Shown here in pieces: positions 1 to 48,000 of a stretch of DNA of 64,000 nucleotides. Both the position numbers and the translations under genes were made by a program. The first letter of the stretch is position 1. Each line of letters starts with the position of its first letter. A model generated the notes under the pieces. The model searched no databases and was not told the origin of the DNA. It saw nothing but the letters and a program-made list of their open reading frames with translations. Origin of the DNA: Gaeumannomyces sp. JS-464 (Eukaryota > Ascomycota > Sordariomycetes > Magnaporthales > Magnaporthaceae); assembly GCA_002197995.1 (NCBI GenBank), contig NGZR01000001.1, forward strand, positions 13,349,501-13,413,500, read 5' to 3'.

Positions 1-2990
1 ATAAAAGTATAACCGCCACTTTTCGAATGCTCGAATTATCGTTAAAAGGTTTTTATTATATATTTGGTAATTTAATTTAAATCCGTTTAACTTTTACGAA
101 AAAACGTAAGAAAGTATAACCGTTTTTAATCGTTTCGCTATTTAAATTAACCGCCAATCGCGTAACCTAACGCATCGATTTTAACTTTAAAAGGTTTTTT
201 TAAGTTTAAAAATATTAATATTAATTTTTTAACACGTCGTTCCGTAATTGCTTAAAAGCCTTTTATTTTTATTTTCCCTAATAAAATTAGTGGTTATTTT
301 TAGTAAGGTTTATAAATAGTACAGCGATTTTGCTATAACTACAAATAAACCGTTTATAAAAGTTTAAAAACCTTAAAAACCCTCGTACTTTTATAACGGT
401 TTTAAATATAAACCACTTTTTAACTTTTTTAACTTTTTTAAAATCCATATAAACCTATCCAAATGTAATTACGAATTTTAAAAAAGCGACTTTTTGCAAA
501 TACCATTCGCACTTTTCTAGTTTAATAAAAAGCTTTGTATTAAATAGCATTTAAAGCGTTTTATATACGTATTGCTTATATTTTTCCATCGTTTTCGATA
601 AAATTAAAATATCGTTTAAATACGTAAAAATAAAAATGTCGAAATACTCGCGTAATATATAAGTAATTATTTTTTAAAACGTGGTTAATGCATTAGTAAG
701 CCCGAAAGTTATTACTAAAAACTCGTAGCATTTAAGCTTTATTTTAAAAGCCGTAAACCATTTTTAACCCTTTTTAATTTATATTAAATTATAAGCTTTT
801 CGTAAATCCAAAGCTGTAAAATACTAGGCTTTATTAAGCTTATCGCGTAATTTATCGATAAAAAGTAAAAAAATACCGATTTTTAATTATAGCTTCGTTT
901 AATAATGTTATAGGACAAGATTAATGTTAATCCACGTGTACCACGAAGGTAAAAAAAGAACGTTGTTATAACTAGGGCTATAACCGTGCGAAGTTCTTAT
1001 TAAAAACCGATTGCACCGTAACAAATAGGCGGTAATCGATATATATTCGTTCCGTTCCATTTTTTTTCTTTATAAACTCCCGTATTTTATTAAAAAATCG
1101 AAAGGTTTAATATATCCTTTTCGTAAGTTTTTTTCCAGCTATTTTTTAATACCTTTTATTGCCGAAAGCTAAGTTAGTACAGCTTTTAATACTTAAATTG
1201 CGTTTTTAATTTAAGCTTAATTTTAAAATCGAACGGTTTGTGTTCGGGAAGCACGGTTTTTAGGTTTTTCTTAAACAACTTTTCGTATTTGTGGTATTTT
1301 TTTAAAACATTTGCAAGCCGTTTTTTAATATTAGTTTAGTCGTTTTAATCGCTTTCCATTTTAAATAATCGTATATTTATTAGTTAATACTAAATGCAAA
1401 AGTGAATTATTAAATCCTATTACCGTTATAACCTTTTTTCGTTACTTTTTATGCTTACGGTTTAAAGTTCGTAATTAATAAACCGTTTTAATTATTTATA
1501 ACTCCTTGTATTAAATTTAACCGGTAGTTTAATTTATCCGTAAGTTATTTTTCTTAAATTAAAGATTTTAAAAATTATATTTCCTTTTTTTATATTTAGC
1601 TCGTTTAATATAATAATAACGTTTTTTTATTTCGGGTGCGTAATATTATTAATTGTATTTTTCGGTCGATTTATTTTTCATTATAAGCAACGGGTATTTT
1701 TTAACCGTTTTTAATTAATACGGTTAATATTTCCGTTTTGTAGGAATTCCATACCGTTTAACCGTTTATAACGATACGTAATCGCTTTGTATTTCGCAAT
1801 CGATTATTACTTTAACCTTTTTCCTTTAATATTCCATCCGGAATGTTAATAAGTTATATGGTTAAATCGATTTTACTATCGCGAAGGTTTTTATCGGTTT
1901 TCGTTTCCCATTTCGTACTTTTCGTTTAAGTGGTTTTTTTAATTTTTTAATAAAAGGAACGAATACCGTACGTTTGTTTTTTTATTTAAATCGAACAAAA
2001 CGTACGCTCGCGCGATCCGTTAACATTAACCTTCCGCTTTTTATACTATATGTTTTTTGCATTTTATAATTTTACACTTTTCCTAATCGAGCGTTTTAAT
2101 AACGCATAGCATCGAATACCGTTCGCTAGGTTTAAAAACTGCGGTAAACTTACCGATTTGGGCTAATTTTTACCGTGGCAATTGGAATGCTAAACGGGGT
2201 TTAATTTTAAGCTTATTTCTTATTTTCCGTGGGAAAAAGTCGTGTTAAAATTTAAGTTATAAGTGGAATTTGCATTTTCCGTAAATGCATTTTGCTTAAA
2301 ACAAATGCAAATGTTTAAAATGCTTTAAATCGATATTAAAATAGTTTTCCGGTTTTAACGCGGCCTTTTTTAACTCGCTTATATCGTCGAACCGGTACTT
2401 AGCGTACTTAACTTTTTATTAGTTGTTAAACCACGATAAAAGTTAGCCGTTATTTTCGTCCGCCGGGGTGGCGTAATATAACGGGCCATTTGGGTATTTT
2501 AAAACCTTAACGTTTTAAAAACACTTCGAAATATTAAAGGGCGTAAAAACGCGTTAATTTTTTTAATTTGCTTAACTTTTACGAATTATAAATATAAAAG
2601 TTACGTCGTTTAAGCTTTTTATTTATTTTTTAAAACTCGGCTATTTCGAGGTTTTATTCGTTTTAGTTTATTTCGGCGTTAGTATCGGAATTTTCCGACT
2701 TACGAAAAAGGTGGGTTTAATTTAAAAGCTTTTTTTAGGCTTTTCCTTTTTTCGAACCGCTTGCTAAAGTTACTCCCTTTTAAATTCCGCGAAAAGCGGC
2801 ACCGTTTTCCTTTTTAAATTCGTAAGCCCGAAAGCAACGCGTTGCTCGTTTTCGCTATCGTATTTAAACCTTATAGCTTTAAGCATACAAACGTTTCGAA
2901 GTTTCCGAAAGTATTATCCGGTAACCTTTTTATCGAATTAGTATGTGGTATATAACTTATCGTAATAGCTTATTTAATTAAACGCCGATT
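1..2990 (-). pseudogene. pol remnant of copy A (RT region)
   Basis: Translation of the minus strand near 1030-1065 gives the start of a Ty3/gypsy reverse transcriptase (KNGTERIYIDYR), the strand and position predicted from the complete X copy, where the same block lies at 27601-27660. The protease part should lie between here and the gag knuckle. Frames are interrupted by many TAA/TAG codons, and the RT is further split by the solo LTR at 906-1023. RNase H and integrase lie beyond the left edge. Confidence 0.75.
906..1023. repeat. 118-bp solo LTR of another family inside copy A
   Basis: An extra segment absent from the aligned position of the complete X copy (near 27590). It begins TGTTATAGG and ends CCGTAACA, giving the TG..CA ends and short inverted termini of an LTR. 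Flanks AATAA and AATAG look like a 5-bp target duplication with one RIP-type change. No second copy of this LTR was seen in the window. It splits the reverse transcriptase frame of copy A. Confidence 0.6.
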
Positions 2991-13371: not shown

Positions 13372-14068
13372 ATTAAAACGTTTAATTAAAAAAAATGCAA
13401 AATTGTAAAATGTAAAAAGAAATAATATAAAAAGCGAAAGCTTAACATTAAAAAATTACGCGAACGTATATTTCGTTTAACCAAAATAAAAAAAACGAAC
13501 GTACGGCATTTATTCCTTTTATTAAAAAATTAAAAAAAAACTACTTAAGTAAAAAGCACGAAATGGGAAGTAAAAACTAATAAAAAACCTTCGCGATAGT
13601 AAAATCGAATTAATTGTATAAGCTATTAACGTTTCGAATAAAATATTAAAAAAAAGTTATAGTAATAATCGATTATAAAGCATAAAGCGATTATATATCG
13701 CGATAAACGGTTAAACGGTATAAAATTTTTTATAAAACGAAAGCATTAATCGTACCAATTAAAACGGTTAAAAAATGCTTATCGCTTATATAATAAAAAT
13801 AAATCGACCGAAAAATACAACTAATACTTACGCATTTAAAATAAGGAAAACGTTATTATTATATTAACGAATTAAATATAAAGAAAAAACCTTATTTTTA
13901 AAAATCTTTTAGTTTAAAAAAAATAACCCGCGAATAAATAAGCTACTAGGTAAATTTAATAAGAAAATTACGAGTAATTAAAACGGTTCGCTAATTACGA
14001 ACTTTAAACCGTAAACGTAAAAAGCAACGAAAAAAGGTTATAACGGTAATAGGATTTAGCAATTTACT
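13372..14068 (+). pseudogene. Family X copy H, continuation (protease/RT-proximal part)
   Basis: Reverse-complement homologue of about 1400-2090 in copy A, picking up where the copia insertion began. The sequence is collinear until TTTACT at 14063-14068, where LTR B starts; TTACT is thus B's expected target duplication. Stop-riddled; no catalytic motif can be read with confidence. Confidence 0.75.
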
Positions 14069-14540
14069 GGTTACAATTAAAAGTTTGCTTTTAAAGTAAA
14101 GCATTTTAAAAGTGGAAAAGAAAGTATCGCTGGTGTTAGTAAATAAAAAAACACGTAACTTAAAAGGATAATTTAATTGTTTGTTTTAAGAGATACTTAA
14201 AAGCTAACTTAAGTTAATTAATACCGAAGCTTTAGTTAAAACTTTTTAAAATAATAGGAAATCCATTCTTTTATATACGCGCTGCTTTTTACTTTCGTAA
14301 CTTTTGGATTTATCGCTTTGCTTACAAATTTACAAATCCTTTTAAATTTGTAAGCAAAGCGACAAATCCATAAATTCTTTTAAATTTATCACTTTGCTCG
14401 CAAATTTACAAATCCTTTTAAATTTATCGCTCTTTTTACAAATTTATAAATCCTTTTAGGTTACGTGTCCTAATACGATAATAGCACCATTTAAAGCCTT
14501 TCCCGTCCTGCTGTTTTAAAGCTTGCATGCTGTTGTAATA
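14069..14540 (-). repeat. LTR of family X, copy B
   Basis: Longer (472 bp) than the 429-bp LTRs of the complete copy because a module of about 43 bp (ACAAATTTACAAATCCTTTT with its flank) is present in extra copies between 14313 and 14460. First bases GGTTACAATT, last GTTGTAATA. Confidence 0.85.
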
Positions 14541-14652
14541 TTAAGCTTTCCTTTTAAGCCGAGTTTTTTTAACCATATTTTATCGCCCCGCTTTTTTTAA
14601 TAGTAAGTACTTTCCTTTTTTACCATTTCCTATTCCTTTTTATTTTAATAAA

Positions 14653-15090
14653 ATGTTAGTCGAGTGCGAAAATGTCTTTTTGCGAAAAAAAACCTTTTAA
14701 TGTAAGGATTTACTTATTTAAATCGTTTTTTTTGCCGTTAAAATGCCTTTTTGCTTTTTTTTACAAGGTTTTAAAGCGTAAAAAATTTATTTCGGTATGT
14801 GAAATGTTTCGGTTAAACAGTTTTTAATTGCGATCTTCGTTTAAGAAATTCCGTTTATCGGTTTTATTTAATCAAAAAAAACGGTTTAAAGCGATAAAAA
14901 AAAGCGCCGCGTTTTGGATAATAAATTCGAACGCTTGCGAAAATAAAAAAAAGCATGGTTCGAAAAGAAAATGCGTGCAATTCATCGTGGTATTAACGCT
15001 GTAAAAAAGTTAAAACGTATTAAGTAGGAGGAGGGCGACCGGAAAGCCCGTTAAATTTCCTCGCAATCCGAGCTATTCGTAGTTATTGCC
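14653..15090 (+). pseudogene. Antisense cysteine/coiled-coil ORF remnant in family X (copy B)
   Basis: Opposite strand to pol, between chromodomain and 3' LTR. One frame from an ATG at 14653 can be followed through several TAA/TAG codons to about 15090 and matches the frame at 24185-24722 of the complete copy. The N-terminal Cys block is partly lost (residues FCFFYKVLKRKKF remain). The Lys/Arg/Glu-rich C-terminal part (RRVLDNKFERLRK, then WFEKKMRAIHRGINAV) reads as a heptad-like helix. Function unknown. Confidence 0.5.
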
Positions 15091-16009: not shown

Positions 16010-16440
16010 AACGTAATAGCGTAAATATTACTTTATAGTTTGGTTTATTCGCTTCGTTTATTCGTTTATTTAAAAGTGGTAAGCCGTAAATAAAAAATGC
16101 TTAGCTTTTAGTAAAGTCGTAAACCTTTTCCAAAATTTGCTTATAAATAGCTTATTTTTATCCGTAATTAAACGGTTCGGCGTGCCGTGTTGCGTTATTA
16201 TATGTTTAATAAAAACGTACGCTAATTCGGTAACGTTGCTGCTTTTTTTATACGGTAAAAATAAAGCATATTTGGTAAGCTTATTTATTATTACCAATAC
16301 ATTGTCGTATTTTACTTTAATTTTTCGTTTTTTAAATTGGGGAAATTTAATAACCAAATTTATAGTAACTTTTTACCACGCTTTATTAAGCGCCGGTAAA
16401 AGTTGTAAAAGCTTATAAAGTTTATACTTATTAGTTTTAT
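16010..16440 (-). pseudogene. Integrase core of family X (copy B)
   Basis: The open piece at 16070-16357 reads VLVIINKLTKYALFLPYKKS, then HGTPNRLITDKNKLFISKFW, then FTAYHF. This is the DDE integrase core of Ty3/gypsy elements; the second catalytic Asp is retained in ITDK. Downstream on the plus strand begins the chromodomain region. The plus-strand frame 16137-16418 is its shadow. Confidence 0.8.
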
Positions 16441-16675
16441 TTTTAACACAGTTTTCGCAATTTTTTATTACGTTTTATATTTCGGCTCGAGTTTTTACGA
16501 ACCCGTGATATTATTATAACCGTTTTTATATTTTAGTTACATTTTAATAGTTATGTGCCAATTGGTTATAAATTTGTTAAATTCTTTTTCGGGTTTAAAC
16601 TTTTTTTACCGGACCGTTTAGCGAATATCTTTTATGCCGGGATTAAAAATCCGTTTGGTTTTTTCGTTAGGATTA

Positions 16676-20100: not shown

Positions 20101-20347
20101 AATAATATAATATTTTTTAACATTTTTAAAATAATATAAAATAAAATAAAAATACTTACCTATTTAAATCCAATTCGCATTTAACGATATAAATAATCGC
20201 CGCCGGTATGCGTTTTAAAATTATGCTAATTTATCGGGGTTTTTAAAGTTAGGATTTTTTAACCCCGATTTTTACCGCGAAACTTTCGTTTATTGCTACA
20301 TAATAATTGCAACCGGAATTTACTTATATATTAACGAATTTAATATT
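17170..20347 (-). pseudogene. Ty3/gypsy element E: protease-RT-RNase H-integrase remnant
   Basis: Read leftward. A retropepsin-like start lies about 20200-20345 (VNSGCNYYVAINESFAVKIG, with the catalytic DSG changed to NSG). RT follows: VNYRAFNAIT at 19501-19530 and NLDDMLIFF at about 19211-19250, the latter the YLDD box with Tyr changed to Asn. RNase H and integrase regions continue to about 17400; the 99-codon opening at 17465-17764 lies in the distal part. E differs from family X. Its gag lies at 31089-32323; the two were separated by the virus-like segment and the complete X element. Confidence 0.75.
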
Positions 20348-20359
20348 ACAGCCTTAGTG
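20341..20359 (+). promoter_or_regulatory. Virus-type origin nonanucleotide at the left junction
   Basis: TAATATTAC at 20341-20349, the conserved origin sequence nicked by Rep between positions 7 and 8 in geminiviruses and genomoviruses. Bases up to 20347 can be read as element E coding sequence, and 20348 onward as insert. AGCCTTAGTG (20350-20359) can pair with CACCAAAGCT at 23624-23633 in 8 of 10 positions. One mismatch is a RIP-type change. Confidence 0.55.
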
Positions 20360-20428
20360 CGCAATGTTTTAATATCCTCTTCGTAGTAGTGTAAGTCCTT
20401 GTGCGGGGTTTGCTAAGTTTAATTAGTG

Positions 20429-20469
20429 TTTTGCAGGGGATTGTTTTATTATTTTCGTAATTTGCAGGG
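20429..20469 (+). repeat. Candidate iterons near the origin
   Basis: Two direct copies of TTTGCAGGG, at 20430-20438 and 20461-20469, about 30 bp apart and 80-120 bp from the nonanucleotide. CRESS-DNA Rep proteins bind short direct repeats (iterons) beside the origin. Two copies could also be chance. Confidence 0.3.
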
Positions 20470-20548
20470 CATTATTATATGATAGTTTAGTTTTCGCAAT
20501 GGTTAAATAGGACCGCATCCAATCGCAATTTCGCGATGCATACATCCC

Positions 20549-20556
20549 TATATAAA
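20549..20556 (+). promoter_or_regulatory. TATA box upstream of the capsid-like frame
   Basis: TATATAAA preceded by a CCC-containing stretch, in the noncoding left flank of the virus-like segment and oriented toward the capsid-like frame. Plausible leftover promoter for the plus-strand transcript. Confidence 0.35.
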
Positions 20557-20609
20557 CTGCAACACAATTAAATATAATCGGCATATTACAGCTTTACACA
20601 GCCCTTATA

Positions 20610-21146
20610 TTGCTTTTTAAAGTCGGTCGTTTGGATATTCCCTTTTATTATTGCATTAGTGTTTTACGCGAAATTATTATTTATTTATTCGATCGCGATA
20701 CGCGCATTCGATTAAACGTGGATTTTCCCGTTATTATCGCGTTTTTATCATGTCGACTGTCTTTTTCTCTGCCTATAAAAAGAGGTGCTTTGCTTGCCAT
20801 AAGTTGCAAAATTACCCTTTTTCTCGATGTATTTACGATTCCGTTACAAGCGATCGACTTGGTATCGTCGCTTTTACCCCAATCGCTTTTTATACGGCAC
20901 CGTCCGTTTTTTAGCTCGATTTCCTCGTTAGCGTCGCTAGCGCTATTAAATACAGCCGCCGTTCGCTGTATCCTTCTTTATCGATTCGGCACTTTTTTAA
21001 TCAGCCGCATTTCCGCTTTAGTGCTGCTTTTCCTTCTTTTCGACACTTTGTGCACCACTTTCACTCCTTACCGTTACCACCGCCATTATGGTTTCCGGCT
21101 TACGAGGAGGCTACCGGCGCCACTTCCGCAGCGGTCGAGGCTTTAA
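20610..21146 (+). CDS. 178-codon open frame upstream of and overlapping the capsid-like frame
   Basis: The longest uninterrupted plus-strand frame in the window and very hydrophobic overall (Leu/Ile/Phe/Ser-rich), ending in an Arg-rich tail RYHRHYGFRLTRRLPAPL. It overlaps the start of the capsid-like frame by about 60 bp in another phase. Some geminiviruses have a small V2-type gene in this place, but there is no sequence motif to support that here. It may be open only because this phase happens to lack RIP-prone codons. No function assigned. Confidence 0.25.
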   Translation: MLFKVGRLDIPFYYCISVLREIIIYLFDRDTRIRLNVDFPVIIAFLSCRLSFSLPIKRGALLAISCKITLFLDVFTIPLQAIDLVSSLLPQSLFIRHRPFFSSISSLASLALLNTAAVRCILLYRFGTFLISRISALVLLFLLFDTLCTTFTPYRYHRHYGFRLTRRLPAPLPQRSRL

Positions 21147-22038
21147 CCGTTTTGCGTCGGCAGTAAAGCAGGTTTTTAACGTTAAGCGCCATTTTATTAG
21201 CAAATTGGTTAATGGGAATTCGCAGCCAGTCCGGTGTAAAATGCGTACCGGCACCCCTAATTCCGGTTTTTTTCTACCCGGCACCGACCTTTATCGTGGT
21301 ATTAATCGCGGCCCCGATATTTATACCGTTATTTATCGGGGTATTAAGCTTAATATATCGATTTGTGTATTTCGGTTTTGCAGCATGCGCATTATTGCTT
21401 ATCGCTTTGCCATTAATATCGCTGCTAATATATGGCATTATAGTAATCCTTTTAACGATGTGCGGAGTGTCGCACTCGTTTTAAGCGGGGGGGGGGGGGG
21501 GGGGGGGGTGGTGGATTTGGTAAGCTGGATCCGGAGGAAATAAATAATTCGTTTAGCGCTCGTTAATATCTCGCTAAATGTGAAGACTTTTTTTTTTTCT
21601 AATATTCGGACCATTTTTTTTCGGTTTATCGATTCGTAGCGCCGTTTACGCGTTTTGTTAAATTAAGTTTAGCATTTTTATATACGCGGGGCATTTTAAT
21701 TTCGGCCTGTTTTAATTTAGGTTCTTTTAACTTAAAAGGTTAAGTATTTCGGCATAAGGTTGGATGGTTTTTATCGGTGTATGCCATTAAAAGTTCCGTC
21801 GGACATTTATTTTTTTATTGTATTATATGCCGTTTTTACGGCGGAAAGCTAATATAGGCCCAATCCTATAGTGATGGATTTGGACCTTACTATTGTTATT
21901 TACCCGGAGGAGGTTATGGATAAGCCGTATTATCGCAGTTTGTTCGGCGCAAATCGGGTTTTATTTTTCTCGTTTGCCCGTTTTAAAAGTCCGGGACATT
22001 AGTTTTACTTTGTATTGGCGATAGCCGAAGTAAAGTAA
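21088..22038 (+). pseudogene. Capsid-like protein frame, RIP-broken
   Basis: From an ATG at 21088 a single phase runs 317 codons to TAA at 22036-22038. It is open for the first 151 codons and then carries about eleven TAA/TAG codons and no TGA, as expected from RIP of Gln codons. The N-terminus is strongly basic (GGYRRHFRSGRGFNRF), like the DNA-binding/nuclear-localising arm of CRESS-virus capsid proteins. A stretch near residues 65-120 alternates beta-like segments with IIAYRF and NPFND. Length suits a single-jelly-roll capsid. Homology is inferred from layout, length and composition, not from a diagnostic motif. A 22-base G-run codes for Gly in this phase. An upstream extension of the same phase to about 20835 is possible. 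Confidence 0.4.
21487..21508 (+). repeat. Poly-G tract of 22 bases
   Basis: Uninterrupted G22 inside the capsid-like frame. It is striking in such AT-rich sequence and prone to slippage and to sequencing error, so the true length and the downstream phase are uncertain. Confidence 0.9.
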
Positions 22039-22042
22039 TTAA

Positions 22043-23306
22043 TTAAAAAAAACTATCGTTTTTTTCGTTTAATTGTTTTATAAACGCTTTTAACGCTTCC
22101 ACTTTTAAATCTAGCGTTTTATATGGCCTCGCCTCCACGAACAGTGGTTTATGCATTTGCACGAATATATAATTTCCGTCCAACCACGTGGCGTCCACCC
22201 CATTATACCCACGTAGGTTTTCGTTTGCTAAATAAATGCAAAGCAATCCTTAGCTTTCGAAATGCACCTTTTTAAAGTACTTATCGGTTACCGAAAAATT
22301 GCTTTAACATTTTAGCATTTGCTTGTAATGCTTAAGCATATTTTTATCGCTTAATAGCACGTCGTCGATTACCAAGTATTTTTTAATGCTATTAAGCAGC
22401 GAGGCATTCCAATACCCACTTATGTAATTGTATAAGCCTAGGCTTTTAGCTTACATTGTTTTAAACAGTTTTATTGCACCGTATAAATACAGTAACTTAG
22501 GTCGTCCTATTAATAAAAGATAAGGTTAGCTACGTGTATAAAAGGTTCGGCGAGGGGCTTCCCGGGGGCCCTTTTAAAGTGGGGGGTTTAAGCTTTAAAC
22601 CGGACCTAACAAAATACCACCAACCAAGCCAAAACTAGGTTTTTACCCCTTAGGGGGTCCCGCAGCGAAAGACGAGCGGAAGGGGGGGTTATATCGTACC
22701 TTGTTTTTCTCGCAAGTTTTTTTACATCCACTTTGTAATTTCCACAAAAAGGTCCCACATACCGTTTAACGCTGGACTAACATACTTTAAGATTGGCATG
22801 CGGAATGTGTTATTAGCGTAAGCTTTTACATTTGTATAATGCAAAATTAATTCGCGGGGGGCCTTTTCGCGGAACCGGGAAAAAAAATCCGTGCGGTCGG
22901 ATGTTTTCACAGCCGCAAACCAAAAGTTTGCTTTAAGGTTTTTTCGCAGCCCTTTTAGCTCGGTTATTATACCGCTAACGTGTTTTAATTGGCCTTTCCG
23001 CTTGTGGAGGTATTTCCAAACAGCTAACTGTTGTTTAATCCGCTCGATGTTCGGATAAAACCTTTTAATATCGAAGTGTTTAGGGTTTTTAATGTTTTTC
23101 TTTTTGTCCTAATTGCTAATAACGTGGTAATGCGGGGTGCCGTTTTTGTAATGCTTTCGGACGGCGTAATAGTCGAAAAAGCCGAACTTTTCAATGCTTT
23201 GGTTAAGTTCCTTTGGCGAAAGCGTACATTTTGAGTACGTTAGGAAAACGGACTTTAATGCAAGCCGGAACGGTATATTGCCGACGCAAGGATCGACGAT
23301 TTGCAA
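22043..23306 (-). pseudogene. rep: Replication-associated protein (Rep), geminivirus/genomovirus type, RIP-broken
   Basis: Rolling-circle initiator. From an ATG at 23306 the minus strand shows motif I FLTYSKC (23246-23226), motif II PHYHV (HxH at 23132-23124), a GRS-like segment FDIKRFYPNIERI (about 23070-23030) and a YxxK-type motif III (KYLHK). This phase continues to about 22700 with in-frame TAG/TAA. The superfamily 3 helicase part follows in a different phase from about 22528: a degraded Walker A around 22460-22500, Walker B VIDDV near 22361-22375, then C-terminal open codons 22246-22043. In a live virus Rep nicks the origin, joins to its 5' end and unwinds DNA. The phase change coincides with a GC-rich insert at 22547-22700. 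Confidence 0.8.
22547..22700 (-). other. GC-rich insert between Rep endonuclease and helicase parts
   Basis: About 150 bp with G/C runs and short palindromes (GGGGGCCC, CCCGGG, CCTTAGGGGG) unlike the flanks. The Rep reading phase shifts across it. A minus-strand GT at 22699-22698 and AG at 22531-22530 bound a possible intron, as found in some mastrevirus-type Rep genes, but splicing exactly there leaves the phase one base out. It could be an intron with decay, or an insertion. Confidence 0.35.
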
Positions 23307-23640
23307 ATCGTTTAACTATTAGCTTATTAGTAATATTGGTGTTTCGTTTTGCATAAGCGAGTTAAATAAGTGGTTTATTAAAAGTGGGGAAAGTAAACCG
23401 ATTAATAAAGTGTTTATTTATGCGTTATGTTATTAGTTGTCGAACACTGTTTATAGCACGAACAGCGGTAATAATTGCAAAAGAGAAAAAGGGGGGGGGA
23501 CGATGCCTGGAAAAATTGAAATGGGGAAAACATGTTACTGCTTATTGCCTATTGCTTGGGATATTGTTAAGAAATCGGAATGCGGTGTCCTGTCCTTTTT
23601 ATGCTTTTTTCACACCGCGCGAACACCAAAGCTAATTTAA
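23307..23640. other. Rep-side noncoding flank of the virus-like segment
   Basis: No coding recognised. It contains a G8 run near 23480 and ends with the arm CACCAAAGCT followed by AATTTAA, where the X element's target duplication TTTAA (23636-23640) begins. In a circular genome this would join 20348 to make the large intergenic region. Frames at 23384 and 23437 overlap each other and look fortuitous. Confidence 0.45.
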
Positions 23641-24069
23641 TATTACAATTAGGGGTTTGCTTTTAAAGTAAGGCACTTTAAGGGTAAAAAGGACAGTATC
23701 GCTAGTGCTGGTGGACAGGGGAACACGTAACTTAAAAGGATAATTTAATTGCTTGCCCTAAAAGATGTTTAAAAGCTAACTTAGGTTAATTAATGCCGAA
23801 ACCTTAGTTAAAACTATTTAAAATAGTAAGAAATCCATTTTTTATATACACGCTACCTTTTATTTTACGTTAGGTTAAATTTATGGATTTATAATTTCGC
23901 TAATATAAATTTAAAAATCCTTTTAGCTTTATAAATTTGTGGTTTCGCCGATACAAATTTAAAAATCCAGCTAAAGTTACGTAACTTTACGTGTTTAGGT
24001 GCGGGGCAAAAGCACCGCTTAAAGCCCTTTTCGTCCGGCCGCCCCGGGGCTTGCATACTAGTCGTAATA
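23641..24069 (-). repeat. 3' LTR of complete X copy
   Basis: Starts TATTACAATT (from TGTTAC by G-to-A) and ends TCGTAATA. Aligns with 30655-31083 over its full length. Confidence 0.92.
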
Positions 24070-24087
24070 TTAGGTTTCCCTTTTTAA
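24070..24087 (-). promoter_or_regulatory. Polypurine tract of complete X copy
   Basis: The minus strand reads AAAAAGGGAAACCTAA directly against the 3' LTR, the primer site for plus-strand DNA synthesis. The same tract sits before the LTR at 59416 (AAAATGGGAAACCTAA), identifying that as an X element in the opposite direction. Confidence 0.75.
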
Positions 24088-24184
24088 GCCAAATCCTTTT
24101 GGCCACGTTTTATCGCCCCGCTTTTTATTAATGGTAAGTACTTTCCTTTTTTACCATTTTTTATCCCTTTTTTAATTTAACAAA

Positions 24185-24722
24185 ATGTTTAGTCGGGTGC
24201 GAAAACGTCCTTTTGCGAAAAAAACCCTTTAACGTAAAAACTTGCTTGTTTAAATCGTTTTTTCCTTTATTAAAATGCCTTTTTGCTCTTTTTATTACGA
24301 GGTTTTAAAGCGAAAAAAGTGCGAAGCCTTTTTTTAAAACTCTTTTCGGTGCGTGGAATGCTTTAATCGGAATCGCATAAATTGCGACATTTTAAGTTTT
24401 TCGCCCAAGCAGCTTCGTTTTATCGGCTTTTAATACTAGCAAATAAAAGCGAAAGTCGAAGCGGTAAAAGAAAAACGTCGCGTTTTAAACAACAAACGTC
24501 GTACTTTAAACAATAAACTCGAGCGTTTACGAAAATAAAAAAAATATGGTTTAAAAAGAAAATGCGTGCAATTCGTTATAGTATTAACGCTGTAAAAAAG
24601 TTAAAGCGTGTCGAGCGGGAGGAGGCCGACCGGGAGGCTCGCCGGGCTTTTTTACAACTTAAACCATCCATAGCTCCTTCCTTTTTTTTCGGTTAGCAAG
24701 CGTTCGAAGTTAATCCTAATTT
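24185..24722 (+). pseudogene. Antisense ORF of family X: cysteine cluster plus coiled coil
   Basis: Opposite strand to pol, between the 3' LTR and the chromodomain. From ATG 24185 one phase runs with only TAA/TAG interruptions, with a slip in an A-run near 24535, to about 24722. Seen: MPFCSFYYEVLKRKKC followed by RCVECFNRNRINCD, giving C-X2-(Y)-X8-C-X9-C-X2-C-X7-C. If the Tyr codon was Cys before RIP, this is close to a Zn2Cys6-type six-cysteine layout. A Lys/Arg/Glu-rich helix follows, containing KEKRRVLNN and EREEADREARRA. Copy B keeps the same frame. Proteins with such a Cys block and coiled coil are common in fungal genomes; the role in this element is unknown. Confidence 0.55.
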
Positions 24723-24920: not shown

Positions 24921-25125
24921 CTAACCGTTCGGCGCAAACTTTTTTGCCCTATTTAGTTCCGGTAAATGCTGCTTCCTTTTAACCTAATAATAAAGCGGTA
25001 TTATTTATAATACCCATTTTATAAATCCCGGGTTCGATTCCCGGTTAAGCTAAAAAAAAACCGGCGGTTTTTTTTGGAAATATCGCGGGTATTTTTAAAA
25101 AAGATCGCCGTTTCGCCGTCCTTTT
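24921..25125 (+). repeat. Insertion of about 200 bp carrying a second tRNA-like sequence (SINE-like)
   Basis: Present in this copy but absent from copy B, whose sequence runs directly from the T-run into GCTAACTG..AAGCGCTTTTACCGG. The insert is bounded by TTTTGCTAA on both sides, as a retroposon duplication would be. Inside, 24970-25054 has a clear T-arm (CCGGG TTCGATT CCCGG at 25028-25044), an anticodon-arm-like GGTATT..AATACC and a short A-run after the 3' end. Confidence 0.45.
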
Positions 25126-25179: not shown

Positions 25180-28100
25180 TTACAAAATTGGTTCCTTTTT
25201 CCCACGTGTTTTTTTCGTGGCCGTACTTTTTCCATTTAACTAAATACTTTTTAAGGCTTGCGTTTTGGCTTATAATTTAAGATTTTTTCGATTTTGTATT
25301 TTTATTCCGGGTCGATTTCTATTAACTCGTCGTTTTTAAAACCGGTAACGTTAATTCGAATTAAAAACGTAAAAAACCGGGTGGGATTTTATGGTTAATA
25401 GTAGTCGGAATTTGTAATTTACGTTCGAAACCTTTTTTAATACCTTAAAAAGTTTTAATTTTTTATAGTTTAGCTTATCGTTTGGTCGTTTCGTTTTAAA
25501 TTTCGTCGAAAAAGATAAACGCTATCCCTTTTTTTAAAAATTGGTTTTTCGATTTTTTTTTATTTGCTTAAGTAGCTATACGGTGCCGTAGCTTTTTTAG
25601 CTTTGCTTAAAAGTGTTTATGCAGTTTGGTAAGCTCCGTTACTTATATTACCGCTGCTAAAGCATATTTTCCTGCTTTAAATTCCTTATACGCCGTAAGC
25701 GTAAACCCGTAATTCGCATAAAACGATATAATTCCTATGCTTTTATAAATTAAACTGTTATAAGCGAACTAAGCTATAAGAAATAGTTATACCTAGTCGT
25801 TTTATTTATAATTAACGTAATAACGTAAATACTGTTTTATGGTTTGGTTTATCCGCTTTGTTTATTTATTTGTTTAAAAGTACTAAGCCGTAAATAAAAA
25901 GTGCTTCGCTTTTAGCCTACTCGTAAGCCTTTTTTAAAACTTGCTTATAAATAGCTTGTTTTTATCCGTAATTAAGCGGTTCGGCGTGCCGTGTTTTGCT
26001 ATTACGTGTTTAATAAAAAGTACGCGCTTATAACGTCGCTACTTTTTTTATATGGTAAAAACAAAGCGTATTTAGTAAGCCTATCCATATTACTAATATA
26101 TTATCGTTTTTACTTTAATTAACGGTTTTTAAATTGGGGAAGTTTAATAACGAAATTTATAATAACTTTTTGCTACGTTTCGTTCGGTGCTAATAAAAGT
26201 TATAATAACCTATATAGTTTATGCTTATTAGCTTTATTTTTAATATAACTTTCGCAATTTTTTATTACATTTTATATTTCGGTTTGAATTTTTGTAAACC
26301 CGTAATATTGTTATAACCGTTTCCACGTTTTTTTTACACTTTAATAGCCGTATACCAGCTAATTGTAAATTTGTTAAATTTTTTTTAAGTTTTAAACTTT
26401 TCCTTATCGGATTATTTTAGCGAGCGTTTTTTATACCGGGATTAAAAATCCGTTTGGTTTTCCCGTTAAAATTACTCGTGTTTTTTTAAGTATTACAACT
26501 TAATAGTTCGGTTATCGGCTTAAAGCGTCCGCCCGGCCGTTTTCCGACCTTTTCCGGTACTTAATTCAAATGTCGTAGTTTTGCAAAAACTCGTTTTAAC
26601 GGATTTATCGCTTATTTAAATTTTTGCTTATAGTAAAATGCGTTAGGTTTTTGTAATTTATATATATTATAATTTAATAGTTCGTTTTATAAAAATATAG
26701 CCGTTATTTTTCAAATGCTCGGATTATTATTAAAAGCTTTTTATCGTAAATTTGGTAATTTAATTTAAATCCATTTAACTTTTGCGAAAAAAACGCGTAA
26801 AGGTACAACCGTTTTTAATCGTTTCGCTATTCGAATTAGCCGCCGATCGCGTAATTTAACGCGTCGGTTTTAACTTCGAAAAGTTTTTTTAGGTTTGGAA
26901 ATGCTAACATTGGTTTTTTTAATACGGCGTTTCGTAATTGCTCGAAAGCCTTTTGTTTTTGCTTTTCCTAATAAAACTAGTGGTTATTTTTAATAAAATT
27001 CGTAAATAGTATAGCGACTTTATTATAATTACGAATAAACCGTTTATAAAAGTTTAAAAAACCCTAAAAACCCTTATATTTCCGTAACGTTTTTAAATAT
27101 AAGCCATTTTTTAATTTCCTTAACTTTTTTAAGGTTTATGCAAACTTGTTTAAATGTAATTATAAACCTTAAAAAAGCGACTTTTTGCGAATGCCATTTG
27201 CACTTTTTTGGTTTTAACGAGGAGTTTTTACGTTAAATAACTTTTAAAGCACTTTATACACGTGTTATTTATGCTTTTTTATCGTTTTTCGAAAAAATTA
27301 AAATATCGTCCAGGTATACGAAAATAAAAATGTCGAAATACTCGCGTAATATATGGTTAATTATTTTTTTAAAACGTAATTAATGCGTTAGTAAACCCAA
27401 AAGTTATTACTAAAAATTTATAGCATTTAAACTTTATTTTAAAAGCCGTAAACCACTTTTAGCCCTTTTTAATCCGTATTAAGTTATAAGCTTTCCGTAA
27501 GTTTAAAGCCGTAAAATACTAAGCTTTGCCGAGCTTATCGCGCAGCTCGTCGATAAAAAGCAAAAAATACCGGTTTTTAATCGTAATTTCGTTTAGCGGG
27601 CGGTAATCGACGTATATTCGTTCCGTCCCGTTTTTCTTTCTTTTTTATAAAATCCTATATTTTATTAAAAAATCGGAAAGTTTAATATATCCTTTTCGTA
27701 AGTTTTCCTCCAGCTGTTTTTTTAGCACTTTTTATTACCGAGGGCTAAATTGGTACAGCTTTTGGTATTTAAACTACGTTTTTAATTTAAATTTAATTTC
27801 CAAATCGAACGGTTTATATTCGGAAAGCACCGTTTTTAGGTTTTTCCGGAACAATTTTTCGTATTTGTAATATTTTTCCGAAACATTCGCGAACCGTTTT
27901 TTAACGCTAATTTGGTCGTTTTAATCGCTTTTCACTTTAAATAGTCGTATATTCGTTAATGCTAAATGCAAAAGTGGATTGCCAAATTTTATTACCGTTA
28001 TAACCTTTTTTCGTTGCTTTTTATGCTTACGGTTTAAAATTCGTAATTGGTAAACCGTTTTAATTATTTGTAGCTTTTTTTATTAAATTTGGCCGGTAGC

Positions 28101-29600
28101 CCAATTTATCCGTAAATTGTTTTTTTTAAACCAAAGGATTTCGAAAATCACATTTCCTTTTTTTATATCCAATTTATCCAATATAATAATAACGTTTTCC
28201 CCGTTTCGGGTGCGTAATATTACTAGTTGCGTTTTTCGGTCGATTTATTTTTTATTATAAGCGACGGGTATTTTTTCGACCGTTTTAATTAATGCGGTTA
28301 GCGTTTTCGTTTATAGGAATTTTATACCGTTTAACCGCTTATAACGATACGTAATCGCTTTATGCTCCGCAATCGATTATTTTTTAATCTTTTTCCTTTA
28401 ATATTCCATTCGAAATGTTAATAAGTTATATAATTAATTCGATTTTGCTATTGCAAAGGTTTTTATTAGTTTTTCTTTTTTTCCATTCCGTGCTTTTCGT
28501 TTAGGCGGTTTTTTTAGTTTTTTAATAAAAGGAACGAATACCGTACATTCGTCCTTTTATCCGGGTTAAACGGCACGTACGTTTGCGCGATCCCCTAATG
28601 CTAAGCTTTCGCTTTTTATGCTATTTGTTTTTTGCATTTCGCAGTTTTACACTTTTTTTAATCGAGCGTTTTAATAACGCATAGCATTAAATACCGCTCG
28701 CTAGGTTTAAAAACGGCGGTAAACCTGCCGATCCGGGCTGGTTTTTACCGTGGCAATTAAAATGCTAAACGGGGTTTAACTTTTGGCTTATTTTTTACTT
28801 TTATAAAAAGAAATCGTATTTAAGCTTAGGTTATAAATGAAATTTGCATTTCCCGTAAATGCATTTTGCTTAAAAAAGGTACAAATATTTCGAATGCTTT
28901 ATATTAATGCTAAGGTGGTTTTCGGGAATTAGCGCAGCTTATTTTAACTCGCTTGCGTTTTCGGACTTATAGCTAGCATATTTAACTTCCTGCTAATCGC
29001 TAAACCACGATAAAGTTAGCCCGTTATTTTCGTCCGCCGGGGTAGCGTAATATAACGGGCCATTTAGGTATCCTAAAACCTTAACGTTCCAAAAATACGC
29101 CGAAATATCGAAAAGCGTAAAAGCGTGTTAATCCTTTCAGCTTACCTGCTTTTCGCAAACCGTAAGTACGAAAGTTTTACCGTACGAGCTTTCCGCTCGT
29201 TTTTAAAACTCGGCCGTTTTAAAGTTTTAACCACTTTAGTTTATTTTAACGTCGGTATTAGAATTTTCCGTTTTTTAAAAAAGGTATGTTTAATTTAAAA
29301 GCTTTTTTCGGGCTTTTCTTTCCTCCGCGTTACTTGTTAAAATTACTTCCTTTTAAATCCCGCGAAAAACGGTGTCGTTTTTTTTTTCCGAATTTTTAAA
29401 TCCGGAAATAATCCGCTATTTTCCTTTATTATCGTATTTAAACCCCGTGGTTTTAAGCATATAAATGCTTTGTAATTTCCAAAAATACCATCCGGTAGCT
29501 TTTTTATCGAACTAATATATAATATAAAGCTTATCGTAATAATATATCCAATTAAACGCCATTTTAAAATACAATCCTTTTTATATTAAACTTTTTTACG
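25180..29600 (-). pseudogene. pol of complete X copy (protease, RT, RNase H, integrase, chromodomain)
   Basis: From right to left: the protease region lies upstream of RT with no safe catalytic triplet. RT begins about 27690 with NGTERIYVDYR near 27601-27635, followed by a stretch ITIKNRYFLLFIDELRDKL. The RNase H region follows to about 26400. The integrase core at about 25700-26150 and the chromodomain at about 25190-25420 both align with copy B. Every segment has TAA/TAG interruptions. In an active element it makes, integrates and targets the cDNA to H3K9-methylated chromatin. Confidence 0.82.
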
Positions 29601-32555: not shown

Positions 32556-34559
32556 AACTTTTATTTTCGGCCTTTTACGAAAAGCTACAAAACGAAGTTA
32601 AAAACGAGCTCGCAAAAATTAAACAACTCGAGTTTTTATCGAAATACATTAAAAAAGCAGTTTAAATTAACAACTAACTATACAAACGACGATAAATAAA
32701 AAAATAATCGCTAAAAGTTAAAAGTTTCCAAAAATTTAATTAAAGTAAAAAAAAAGTATTAACGCTAAAAAAGCACGGCGTATAAAGCTTATTTAAAACT
32801 TATAAACTTTATTATTAAAGCAGCATATTACGAAAAGGATAAAAAAAGTTTCGATTTAATATTAAAAACGGGAAATGCTTTAAATGCGAACAATTTAAAC
32901 ACATTAAAAAACACTGTTTTTAACTAGCTAAATAAAATAGCAAATAAATAGTAATAATTTACTAATAAAAAATAAAAAAAATTTGTATTTAAAACGCATT
33001 TTTAATTAAACGGTTATTATAACGATTTATACGAAATATACCAATCGGATAAAAACGGATTAAAATAATACCCCCGATTAAAAGTTACCGTTATAATACG
33101 ACGAACTTTCGCAAAATTAAACATTTAAAAAGCTTTTATTTAAATTAAAATCCAAAACGTGAAAAAAAACTAATATAAGTATTTTAAAAAACCAAAACTT
33201 ATTAAGTTTACGAAAAAAAAAGTGGAAAAAATATCCGTTTAACAAGTAGTGCGATAGCGGGAAAAAAGGATATTTTTACTATTAAAAACTTAAATAAAAA
33301 GCATAACTTTATTAAATACCTCGGAAAAAAAGTTAAATAAACCTTTTAAAAGTTTTACAAAGGTTTAAAAAACGCCGAATAATAAACACCACGGCGTTAA
33401 GTAAAATGGGTTATAAAAAGCTACGAAATAAACGATAAACCTTCGAAATACGATTAATAAAACACGATAAATTTGTTAAAACTTAAAAAAATCGAAAAAT
33501 TATTAAGTAATTACATTTAATGCAGCGTGTAATAACTAGTTGAAAAACGCGAAAAAAAACTAAATTGGTTTCTAATAACAAACACGCGTTCGTATAATAA
33601 ATTTTAGTGGAAAAGTTTTCGAAAAACGAAATTTAACAAAAAGCTTAACTTGTTAAAAATAATAACGAAAACCTATTAAATTGGTTTATAAACGTTTAAT
33701 ATATTACGTATTACGAAATAATACAGAAAATAACGCAAAAAAATTAACGAAAAAAAACTTGACAAGTTTATAACGGGAAATTATAAAAACGTGGTTTTAA
33801 TAAAAAACGGCTATAAGCAGCTTTTTTAAGCAAATTGCTTTTATAACGATTGCTTTTCGCATTTAGGAAAAAAGCTAAAATACGATTAGTTTTTATAAAA
33901 ACAACGTAAAAATTAACCACGTGCAAAAGTACGAAAATAATATTAACTTTTATAATAAAAAATTAATATAAGCAATTACGAGTAAAATTTCGTAATTTTC
34001 GAGCTTTTAATTTTTTACCCGATAATTTGCGTTATTAAAATGCTCGAATAGCACAAATGCTTAAACGAAAATGCAAAGTTTACATGCATTAAAAAGCTAA
34101 AGCTTAAATAAACGGGTAAATTTAAAACGTACAGCGAAAATATAATACGAAAAACGGATAAACTTTTAAAACTTTAAAGTTAAAAAACTAAACTAACCAC
34201 CGCGAAAAAAGCACGAAGTAAAATATTACCGTAAAAAACCTTAGTAAAAACTAATACGGCAAAAGTTAAAAGCTAACATTTAATATTATTAATAAAAATT
34301 AACGAACGACTAGTACTTATTATAATTAATAACGGAGTATAAAGGAATTTTATTTTATTAACGGCGGTAAAAAAATGGAAATTTACCACGTAAAAAAAAG
34401 TTTTCGTATTAACTTTATAATTTGAAAAAAAAAAACGGGTTTCGTACAATTAAAACGTTATTATTTAAAAAAACCGATTATTTATAATAATAATCGAACT
34501 TTAAAAAAAAAACTATTGCTTTAAATATTACTAACATAAGGAAATAAAACGTGGTTTTT
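32556..34559 (+). pseudogene. Gypsy element F, gag/protease fragment
   Basis: Plus strand, one phase with TAA/TAG interruptions. It shows a gag C-terminal part similar in layout to family X gag (a segment reading INNQLYKRR after Gln restoration of one stop is suggested), then an intact CX2CX4HX4C knuckle at 32876-32917 (CFKCEQFKHIKKHC). Downstream to 34559 it should cover protease, but no catalytic triplet is readable. It differs from X in the knuckle and is cut off by the repeat starting near 34560. Confidence 0.55.
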
Positions 34560-45049: not shown

Positions 45050-48000
45050 TGTTTACGCCTTAGTAATAGGAAGGCCATCCTATACCGATTGTTAATTAAC
45101 ACGGGATATTTACTATAAGCGTTTATTAATAACTTTTTCGCGCATAAACATTAGCTCCTACGCTAACTTTTACCGCGATTAAAACCATTTCGTTTCGCAA
45201 ACGGGAATATCGTAAAGTACATTATTAAATACGTTAAAACACGACATTACTTCGCCGATAAAACGGAAGTACTAGCAATGTATTACTGGCTTTTAAGCGG
45301 TTTTAATGTTATTTTCGGCCTTTTTTAACTTAAATACCATAACCCCGCTATTAATTAAAAAACAGGCATATTAGCAATTAACGGTAAAACGATAGCGAAA
45401 ACCTAATACGCTATATTAAAACTGGAAATACGAATACTTAACGCTATTAACTTTTTTACTTTTTGCAAATAAACCAAGCGTATAAACCGAACGAACTATA
45501 TTAGGAAAACTTATTACCAAAACGACGATTAAACGCTTAAAAAACACGCGAAATTCCGACGAAATCGCTAACGAAACGCTAATCGCCCTTTTGCGATCCA
45601 TTTTAACCTTAAATAATATACCCGACGTTATTAAACTATTACCACGCTTTTAAACCTTCCGAAATTAAATCGATAAAATACCGCATTTTTAACGAATTTC
45701 CGACGAAAATATTAAAAAATATTTAAAAGGAAAGCTACCGGCGATAATGCAAAAAATCTTGGATAAGCTCCCCGCCGAGCTAAAAAACATAGTTAAATGC
45801 TTTTTGCCAAAAAACGCAAACATTTTACCATTTTACCGGCCGTTCGATTATAAAATCGAGCTGCTCGCCGGTTAAACGCCACTATATAGCCATTATAAAG
45901 CCATATTACTAGGGGAATTACGCGTAATCCGCAAATATTTGGATAAGCATTTAAATAAAAGTTTTATTCGCCCGAGCTAATTTTTCGCCGCAGCGCCGGT
46001 GCTTTTCGCGCGGAAACCCGGTAGAAAAGTACGGGTTTATATCGATTATAAAAAATTAAATAACGTTATCGTAAAAAACCGGTATTTTATCCCGCTTATT
46101 AAAAAAACTTTTAACGCGCTGTTTAAAGCGAAGTGGTTTTTTAAGCTGGATATTACTGCGGCATTTAACCGTTTGCGGATCGCCTTGGGAAATAAATGGA
46201 AAATAACGTTTATTACTAAATTCGGCTTTTTTAAATGCCTCGTCGCCAATTTCGGTATAATAAAAGCCTTAAACTCATTTTAACATTACATTAACCACAC
46301 GTTAGGCGATATTTTAAACAAATTCGCTACCGCCTATTTAAATAACGTGCTTATTTATAGCCAAACGCGGGCGAAATACGGGCGATATATTAGGGATATA
46401 ATATAAAAACTCGCGAACGCCGGCCTTATTATCGACATTAGGAAATGCGAGTTTAGCGTACAAAAAACAAAATACCTCGGCCTGGTTATTACAATAACAG
46501 GGATACGTATAAACGAAAACAAAATACGGGCGATTAAAAAATAGCAGGAACCATATTCGCTAAAAAACTTTTAACGTTTCGTTAGGTTTGCCAATTTTTA
46601 TTAACGATTTATTAAAAGCTTTTTAATTATCGCGCAACTTTTAACAGTATTAATAAGCGAAAAAAGTTAGCCGGGTTTATTTACAATTAAAGCTTTAACG
46701 GCATTTCGATAGCTAAAAAACTCCTTTTCGACCACGATTATTTTAGCTTTTTATAACCCCAGTAAACAAATTATCGTAAAAGCGGACGCTTTCGATTAGG
46801 CGTTTAGCGGAGTTTTATCCTAAGAAAACGATAACGAGGCCCGACGCCCGGTCGCCTTCTTTTCGTTTAAATACTCGCTAGCGAAGTGTAATTACGAGAT
46901 TTATAATAAAAAACTCCTAGCTATAATTAAAGCTTTTAAAAAATGGCGCCCTAAATTTTAAAGCACCGAATAATTAGTGGAAGTTTAGTTAAATTATAAA
47001 AACCTTTAATATTTCGCAATTATTAAACTTTTAAACCAGCAATAAATCCGGTGGTTAAAATTCCTTAGCGATTTTAAGTTCCAAATTATTTATAAATTAA
47101 AAAAATTAACAGTTATGCCAAATGCATTTTCCCGATTACCGGGCGTTTAATTAGCGAACATACGCGATATAACAAACGATAAGATCGCATTGCGCTAAAA
47201 AACGTTACTTTTAAAAAGTGTTTAACAACCAAAGCATTAGCAAAACGACGGTATATTAACACTTTTACAATATATAACACTTTATTAATTGGATATATTA
47301 AAACCTATTAATACGCTAATCGATAATGCTTACGAGAAATGCGAAATAACTTAAGCGATATTGGAAATATTACGAAGCCTAATAGCTAAACAATTCCCGC
47401 ATTTCGTCCGGAAATATAAAATTACTAAAACTAATTGCTTAGCAATCCGCGAGCGTATTTATATCGGGAACCGATTGTAAATCCCGTTTAACGACGCTTT
47501 AAAATTGCAAATCTTACACCGAACACACAGCTTACCGCTAAAAAAGCATCCCGGTAAAACGAAAACATATAACCTTATATAAAAAACTTACACGTAGCTA
47601 AGTTTATAGCGAAACGTTAGCACTTTTATTCGAGGTTATTACTTATGCAAAATGGTAAAAGGAAAAAAAGGTTCGCCAAACGGATTATTAAAACCGCTGC
47701 TAATATTATTTCGGCCGTGGACGGATATTTCGATGGATTTCGTCGGGCTATTACCAAAATGCGAGCGAAACGGGATTAAATACGAAAACGTCCTGGTAAT
47801 AGTAAACCGTTTAACGAAAATAAAACATTACATCCCAATTAGTATAACGAATGCGGGCTGCTTCGCCGACGCTTTCGTTACGTTAATATATCGCTATTAC
47901 GGTATACTAAATACTATCGTTTTTAATAGGGGCACGCAGTTCGTTTCGGCATTTTGGAAAAAACTATCGCGACGTTTCGGCGTTACCCTCCGCATATCGT

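What the first reader, a model, noticed from the sequence alone, without database searches (positions are those of the whole stretch)
20348..23640. Fossil CRESS-DNA virus-like genome with both Rep and a convergent capsid-like frame
Rep motifs I, II, GRS-like, III and Walker B are readable on the minus strand, and a 317-codon basic-N-terminus frame converges on it with a 4-bp gap. This is the ambisense layout of circular ssDNA viruses. Integrated Rep fragments are known in fungi; a whole genome-length unit with a capsid partner, decayed by RIP, would record infection or capture of such a virus by this lineage.
Basis: partly seen in the sequence, partly recalled or inferred. Interest (0 to 1): 0.92.

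Follow-up and report, generated by a model that had tools for sequence, protein, structure and literature searches.

The report
Virus-like jumping element in a fungus
A fungal genome holds many decayed copies of a small virus-like DNA circle that seems to have inserted itself exactly at host copies of the short sequence where such viruses start copying their DNA, which would link a group of small DNA viruses to jumping genes.

Summary
The Rep observation holds, but the unit is one of a family: 22 left ends and 23 right ends in this fungal genome. Each unit runs from one geminivirus-type nick site, TAATATT^AC, to the next (window 20348-23644, 3297 bp). Four arrays show the closed head-to-tail junction.

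New is how it inserted. The seven bases at 17 of 17 single left ends are TAATNTT; of 20 single right ends 18 are TAATATT and 18 continue with AC. For 6 of 10 copies tested, uninterrupted related host sites exist; most hold a TAATNTT-like site, and the element sits between its bases 7 and 8 without duplication or loss. Only base 5 varies among left ends, a base not contacted in solved Rep complexes (PMC7826260, passages).

The second frame is a real gene (codon-phase signal; divergent homologue in a sister type), but here it has 9 internal stops and no detectable capsid relative.

Best reading: a CRESS-type replicon that moved by Rep nicking of host nonanucleotides, as rolling-circle transposon or integrating virus. 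Of 16 Rep matches in the genome 15 contain stops; the other is partial.

The parts
20348..23644 (.). the element: one unit from nick site to nick site, 3297 bp
   Evidence: boundaries shared by sister copies
20341..20349 (+). left nonanucleotide TAATATT^AC: first 7 bases read as target DNA, last 2 as element
   Evidence: 17 of 17 single left ends fit TAATNTT
23638..23646 (+). right nonanucleotide TAATATT^AC: first 7 bases element, last 2 target
   Evidence: 18 of 20 single right ends are TAATATT and 18 of 20 are followed by AC
20350..20373 (+). right arm of the origin hairpin (AGCC.., GCGC.. part) with the place of an iteron-like GGTGTCC pair, decayed in this copy but clear in L019
23612..23637 (+). 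left arm of the origin hairpin (ACACCGCGCG .. AAGCT AATT)
20350..20912 (.). leader, as well conserved as the Rep half and present in both element types, without codon-phase signal
21088..22024 (+). ORF2 (capsid-like position; identity unproven), broken by stops, a 22-G tract at 21487-21508 and a probable frame change after about 21850
   Evidence: homologue in type-B copies
22722..23315 (-). Rep, nuclease part (motifs I, II, III, GRS-like) in two pieces split by a TAG at 23109-23111
22451..22720 (-). Rep interval without phase signal; possible intron inside the Walker A region
   Evidence: transversion p = 0.32; reading by eye, inference
22043..22450 (-). Rep, C-terminal helicase pieces with Walker B LVIDDV
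   Evidence: transversion p = 0.53; any-variable phase test p = 1e-9
24048..24259 (-). paralogous empty target site of the sister copy at C30:1149190 (L018/L048)
26108..26504 (-). paralogous empty target site of the sister copy at C12:8834851 (L019/L049)
28014..28405 (-). paralogous empty target site of the sister copies L022/L076 and L030/L065
1446..1833 (-). second paralogous empty target site of the same host repeat
32666..33061 (+). paralogous empty target site of the array L032/L052 (weaker, 72% identity; AA instead of AC after the nick)

Best explanation
This is a fossil copy of a mobile circular replicon of CRESS-DNA type: a geminivirus-like Rep gene, a second gene in capsid position, and a hairpin origin with TAATATTAC. 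SHOWN: units begin and end at the nick position TAATATT^AC; the closed junction occurs in head-to-tail arrays; related empty host sites mostly hold a TAATNTT site followed by AC, and the unit lies between its 7th and 8th base with no duplication or loss; both genes carry codon-phase signals. INFERRED: Rep nicked the circle and, like an HUH transposase, a matching host site exposed as single strand, then joined the strands. An inserted copy has a nick site at each end, so a later Rep round could peel out and recircularise one unit (copy-out, paste-in). RIP-type mutation then inactivated the copies.
For: 17 of 17 single left ends are TAATNTT (10 A, 5 G, 2 T at base 5); background for TAATNTT in the same flanks is 23 of 8347 windows. 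Of 20 single right ends 18 are TAATATT and 18 are followed by AC. Among the 43 matches listed none begins between query positions 6 and 224, so left ends lacking the site were not filtered out of what that call showed. Base 5 differs from A only at the left end (7 of 17 against 0 of 20, p = 0.0019), so the left heptamer is target and the right one element. Empty sites: 5 of 10 flank pairs (best alignments of about 220-410 nt across the joint) and a sixth copy with 9 full-length matches (1-260 of 260, 86-93%). Tandem junctions in 4 arrays, folding as a hairpin in the one tested. PMC7826260 (passages): A-3 and T-2 are least conserved, with no base contacts in the PCV2 and WDV complexes, and geminiviral Reps strongly prefer A at -5; here only -3 varies and -5 is A in 17 of 17. 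Rep family.
Against: Activity is not shown: of 16 Gemini_AL1 matches in the genome 15 contain stops and the sixteenth covers 63 of 113 positions. For 4 of the 10 flank pairs no convincing empty site was found (L017/L047, also searched genome-wide; L024/L050, L020/L056 and L033/L051, compared only with the fetched DNA). L022 and L030 sit at the same place of one host repeat and may be one event; L030/L065 are ends 10.8 kb apart, taken as one split copy; the L032/L052 empty site lacks the C of AC; some related sites differ at the joint (CAATATT, TAATATC, or a small indel in the relative at window 13637-14027). Position -2 is T in all 17 left ends although the paper calls it as little conserved as -3. 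The hairpin scored only z = -1.4; 16 of 200 shuffles folded as well. Two of 20 right ends depart from TAATATT and two from AC.
Confidence: 0.8

Rival explanations
1. Repeated germline capture of an infecting ssDNA mycovirus: circles came from outside each time and were joined to the chromosome; the inserted copies never moved again. This overlaps with the best explanation if Rep did the joining.
For: ORF2 kept codon-phase constraint and two divergent types, as expected if a capsid was needed for spread; distances of ORF2 and Rep halves disagree between copies (L020/L056 against L024/L050), as in recombining viruses.
Against: Does not by itself explain the exact use of host nonanucleotides unless Rep does the joining; it then differs from the best explanation only in where the circles came from. 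No free relative was found in the scans made.
Confidence: 0.35
2. Host microhomology repair: viral circles recombined with chromosomal TAATATTAC by chance pairing of nine bases, without Rep acting on the target.
For: The circle and the target share the nonanucleotide.
Against: The left heptamer follows the target and the right one the element, which puts the joint on the nick side of base 5; no filler or deletion at the joints of the six copies compared, apart from the differences among related sites told above; the tolerated base is one that Rep does not contact.
Confidence: 0.1
3. A conventional transposon with a 9-bp target duplication TAATATTAC that picked up a Rep gene.
For: Nine-base direct repeats flank the window unit.
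Against: The two flanking copies differ in a directed way (left A, G or T at base 5, right always A); tandem units share one nonanucleotide; no transposase among the ten pieces scanned and no inverted repeat at the two ends among the 25 longest of 175 listed.
Confidence: 0.04
4. A chance Rep-like fragment and a chance frame in AT-rich, RIP-mutated DNA.
For: The first Rep piece of the window copy alone scores just below the Pfam cut-off.
Against: 14 of 16 genomic matches exceed the cut-off while the 14 control genomes give none; codon-phase signals; shared sharp ends, with no match to the reversed control patterns.
Confidence: 0.01

Closest known systems
Geminiviridae / Genomoviridae-type CRESS-DNA viruses
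   Same: Gemini_AL1-type HUH nuclease with motifs I-III and a GRS/bridging-like stretch, Walker B, nonanucleotide TAATATTAC in a hairpin, two convergent genes, unit of 3.3 kb
   Different: No capsid match; integrated in many copies at host nonanucleotides; no free circle found
Geminivirus-like transposon of Tuber melanosporum (Liu et al. 2011, PMC3198968; abstract, passages and section 8 read)
   Same: Multicopy geminivirus-like Rep element in a fungal genome, no obvious target duplication
   Different: That element is described with 37-bp terminal inverted repeats and two transposase frames; here neither was seen, but there are a hairpin origin, direct nonanucleotide ends, tandem units and a second gene
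Endogenous geminivirus sequences of yam (EGV, PMC5014472; passages read) and Nicotiana GRD (as mentioned there)
   Same: Tandem units with a TAATATTAC hairpin in yam; the authors proposed that Rep was re-oriented towards a transposition function
   Different: Plant hosts, no detectable coat-protein homologue in the yam units; in the passages read no insertion-site evidence is given, which is what is found here
Whole CRESS genomes in Entamoeba and Giardia (PMC7493932; passages read)
   Same: Rep and capsid genes integrated together, a tandemly repeated element; integration said to be likely Rep-mediated
   Different: Other virus families; in the passages read no target-site analysis is given
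Helitrons
   Same: HUH nuclease plus helicase, no inverted repeats, no target duplication (PMC10741241 passage and recall); hairpin (PMC5014472 passage)
   Different: Different Rep family (recalled; PMC6668415 passages find no link of helitrons to CRESS Reps); insertion between A and T, not at TAATNTT^AC
Replitrons (Craig 2023, not held; described in PMC10741241 passages)
   Same: HUH element of 0.9-4 kb with short direct terminal repeats and no inverted repeats
   Different: Described with target duplications of 2-8 bp in green algae and lower land plants, and a nuclease distantly related to that of Helitrons; no capsid-position gene is mentioned in the passages

Membership tests
CRESS-DNA viruses (Cressdnaviricota) | HUH Rep with motifs I-III | tested here: met
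CRESS-DNA viruses (Cressdnaviricota) | superfamily 3 helicase domain | tested here: inconclusive
   Walker B LVIDDV and a split Walker A-like stretch by eye; no Pfam helicase hit for the pieces
CRESS-DNA viruses (Cressdnaviricota) | circular genome with nonanucleotide hairpin origin | tested here: met
   closed junction in 4 tandem arrays; hairpin in the one folded, z = -1.4; a free circle was not testable
CRESS-DNA viruses (Cressdnaviricota) | jelly-roll capsid protein | tested here: inconclusive
   ORF2 behaves as a gene but its pieces have no match; models pLDDT 45 and 41
Geminiviridae | geminiviral coat protein (Gemini_coat) | tested here: inconclusive
   no Gemini_coat hit for ORF2 pieces at E up to 10, but only pieces of decayed genes could be scanned
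Geminiviridae | geminate particles in plants | not testable with these tools
   fungal chromosome (Velvet domain genes)
Helitron | insertion between A and T, CTRR near the hairpin | tested here: not met
   target TAATNTT^AC; ends AC..TAATATT
Replitron | target duplication of 2-8 bp with short direct terminal repeats | tested here: not met
   no duplication at the empty sites
Tuber geminivirus-like transposon | 37-bp terminal inverted repeats and transposase frames | tested here: not met
   no inverted repeat at the two ends among the 25 longest of 175 listed and no transposase hit in the ten pieces scanned
Rolling-circle transposon (as a way of working) | precise nick-site ends, no target duplication, target resembling the terminal nick site | tested here: met

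The most novel reading that the evidence does not exclude
A geminivirus-like fungal DNA virus, with its own capsid, that was able to enter and leave chromosomes by using its replication Rep as a site-specific integrase: it pasted itself into host copies of its own origin nonanucleotide and could be copied out again as a unit circle, a temperate CRESS virus and a working link between ssDNA viruses and rolling-circle transposons.
Probability: 0.4. Interest if true: 0.93.

Novelty: new variant of a known kind. Interest (0 to 1): 0.82.

Why it matters
Rep-mediated integration of CRESS viruses and the descent of rolling-circle transposons from ssDNA viruses (or the reverse) have, as far as I recall, been argued mostly from Rep similarity. 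Here the reaction left its footprint: filled and empty sites, directed asymmetry of the two nonanucleotides, and a tolerated base that fits the published structures of the nuclease. It gives a testable rule (TAATNTT^AC, no duplication) for finding further elements and for telling Rep-driven insertion from random capture in other genomes, including the yam elements, for which the authors left the question open (PMC5014472, passages).

Tried and rejected
A single captured viral genome: rejected because of more than 20 copies with shared ends. A 9-bp target duplication: rejected by the asymmetry of base 5. The frames 20556-21146 (+, 196 aa) and 20681-20977 (-, 98 aa) as genes: no phase signal in 20487-20912, and in the 20 copies aligned over 20500-20910 each of the six frames has at least 2 stops in each copy. 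ORF2 as a known capsid: no useful match in Pfam, PDB profiles or the protein database; the protein database considers only proteins of 0.55 to 1.75 times the query's length, so full-length relatives of short pieces can be missed, for the Rep piece above all. Two folds of pieces were too poor to compare, so no fold search was run. Free relatives: none in viral contigs (could not run), in the protein database with a Rep piece or in plasmids. An empty site for the window copy: none among the 40 scored of 851 candidates; its right flank belongs to a common host repeat. Literature: ten full-text searches of the open-access library only; in the listings and passages seen there was no report of nonanucleotide-targeted insertion, which does not show that none exists.
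Full report
SETTING. The window is C1:13349501-13413500 of a 53.0-Mb assembly in 34 contigs. The host is taken as a fungus: the Velvet domain, a fungal family as I recall, has 10 matches, all over its cut-off, while 14 control genomes give none. The species was not identified. Differences among copies are mostly transitions; C/T columns are commonest before T and A, and invariant C sits mostly before G, which fits RIP-type mutation.

OBSERVATION. On the minus strand the pieces 23112-23315, 22725-23108, 22307-22450 and 22046-22249 carry Rep motifs I, II, III, a GRS-like stretch and Walker B. The first piece matches Gemini_AL1 at 6.3e-5, under the cut-off; the second matches Gemini_AL1_M only at 0.088, and two unrelated families more strongly (0.0046 and 0.013), all under cut-off; the other two have no hit. 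The unbroken piece of copy L049 matches Gemini_AL1 at 1.3e-6, over the cut-off. In the PDB the first six matches are named Rep or replication-associated protein; three copper ATPases follow at E of 0.12 and more; with L049 all six matches are Reps. A profile of the middle piece had no useful match. The plus-strand frame 21088-22038 exists but has 9 internal stops.

A FAMILY. Gemini_AL1 finds 16 places in the genome, 14 over the cut-off; 15 have stops inside the match, and the one without covers 63 of 113 positions. DNA of the two halves finds 43 and 38 matching pieces, as lower bounds. A left-end pattern finds 22 places and a right-end pattern 23, with up to 3 mismatches and no match to the reversed control patterns. 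Identity to the window copy over the matched pieces is about 70-93%. Transversion distances between the right halves of 16 copies run from 0.4 to 4.9%, so the copies need not be one burst.

ENDS AND JUNCTION. I examined 21 of the 22 left ends base by base (the other had no locus) and 23 right ends (22 of the 23, and L057). Four left ends and three right ends lie in head-to-tail arrays, where the end of one unit meets the start of the next with a single nonanucleotide; the four junction heptamers are TAATATT three times and TAAAATT once. There the arms AAGGCT-like and AGCCTT-like face each other around AATTTAATATTAC, with an outer ACCGCG/CGCGGT stem; the L021 junction folds so at -8.8 kcal/mol (shuffles -6.0, z = -1.4, 16 of 200 shuffles as good). 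GGTGTCC repeats that look like Rep-binding iterons lie 22 and 30 bases after the start of the left nonanucleotide in L019 and about 61 bases before the nick in 4 of the 10 right ends scanned; the exact heptamer is present in 4 of 21 left ends, so most copies have decayed here or differ.

INSERTION. Single left ends: 17 of 17 TAATNTT (10 A, 5 G, 2 T at base 5). Single right ends: 18 of 20 TAATATT, one TAATAGT, one TAACATT; next two bases AC in 18, AT in 1, AG in 1. TAATNTT occurs in 23 of 8347 background windows of the same flanks. If the nine bases were a target duplication, both sides should match; instead base 5 differs from A in 7 of 17 left and 0 of 20 right ends (p = 0.0019). The change A to G or T is not the RIP direction. 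The left heptamer is therefore host DNA and the right heptamer element DNA, with the joint at the Rep nick.

EMPTY SITES. Ten pairs of left and right flanks were joined in a script and compared with the fetched DNA and the window. Five gave uninterrupted alignments of about 220-410 nt across the joint: L018/L048, L019/L049, L022/L076, L030/L065 and L032/L052. At the joint the related empty sites read TAATATT^AC, TAATGTT^AC, CAATATT^AC, TAATATC^AC or, for the last pair, TAATATT^AA; a further relative at window 13637-14027 has a small indel next to the joint, and L032/L052 also has two weak relatives without the site. Two pairs gave only short doubtful alignments (L020/L056, L033/L051) and three gave none (L017/L047, L024/L050, L036/L057). 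For L036/L057 a genome search with the joined flanks gave 9 places matching bases 1-260 of 260 at 86-93%; the letters of those nine were not read. A pattern of the joint finds three of the nine with 2 mismatches and one more relative that reads AACTGTTTTTTTAATATTACAACATATAAAA. For the window copy no empty site was found. Caveats: L022 and L030 may not be independent, and L030/L065 is taken as one copy split by later DNA.

MATCH TO THE ENZYME. [quoted passage not shown] Here -3 is the only variable target base and -5 is always A. Position -2, also uncontacted in that work, does not vary here.

SECOND GENE. In 21851-22037 the counts are 4, 9 and 2 of 58 (p = 0.058), another phase. The leader shows no such bias: 19, 20 and 18 of 142 (p = 0.94). 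On transversions alone only the Rep N piece is significant (p = 0.0088); the other Rep pieces are not (p = 0.4 and 0.53), though by all variable columns all three are (p = 7.8e-7 to 1e-9). These tests treat columns as independent and are not corrected for their number. Copies of a second type (L055, L057, L058) have at this place a related but divergent protein: L055 against L051 is 25 of 95 identical (E = 8e-11 for the single comparison), while their Rep halves remain 78-79% identical in DNA to the window copy. Genome searches with the two types give 32 and 21 matches. ORF2 is thus a fast-evolving gene in capsid position with a basic, aromatic N-terminus. No database match or usable model supports capsid identity.

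RECOMBINATION. Copy L020/L056 is near the window copy in ORF2 (1.3% transversions in 21088-21480) but far in Rep (3.8%); copy L024/L050 is the reverse (4.9% and 1.5%). Modules were exchanged, as in CRESS viruses (recalled), though conversion between chromosomal copies is not excluded.

MECHANISM. Shown: closed junction, nick-to-nick ends, target sequence, precision, coding signal. Inferred: Rep nicks the circle's or the unit's TAATATT^AC, attacks host TAATNTT^AC when single-stranded, and joins both; the filled site keeps two nick sites, so a further round could release a unit circle. Whether circles arrived from outside or arose from chromosomal copies is open.

COMPARISON AND NOVELTY. The Tuber element (PMC3198968, section 8) differs in ends and genes; the yam study (PMC5014472, passages) proposed a transposition role and left its test open; Entamoeba and Giardia hold whole integrated CRESS genomes (PMC7493932, passages). 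Within the ten searches made here I saw no report of insertion at host nonanucleotides. I call it a new variant of rolling-circle mobile elements built on a CRESS replicon.

Noticed in passing
window 20350-20912: Leader as conserved as the Rep half across both element types but without codon-phase signal: a regulatory or structural constraint of unknown kind.
   Followed up: partly
window 21487-21508: A run of 22 G inside ORF2 of the window copy; G tracts also in L018, L019 and L020, absent in L035, L051 and L054.
   Followed up: no
window 23645-24260: Right flank of the element belongs to a very common host repeat (40 scored of 851 candidates) whose copies begin near the joint.
   Followed up: partly
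window 1446-1833, 14496-14727, 16308-16675, 26108-26504, 28014-28405: Host repeat families of the window that hold the element in other places of the genome; two sister insertions (L022, L030) lie at the same base of one repeat.
   Followed up: partly
window 24981-25052: A tRNA match to Rfam RF00005 (35.8 bits) in repeat-rich DNA.
   Followed up: no
window 47610-48029: Open frame that looks by eye like the integrase of a Ty3-type retrotransposon.
   Followed up: no
window 60057-60948: GC-rich stretch with overlapping repetitive frames on both strands, probably a minisatellite.
   Followed up: no
aligned copies of the element: RIP-like C to T changes appear about as strong before T as before A, unlike the classical preference for CpA (recalled).
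   Followed up: no
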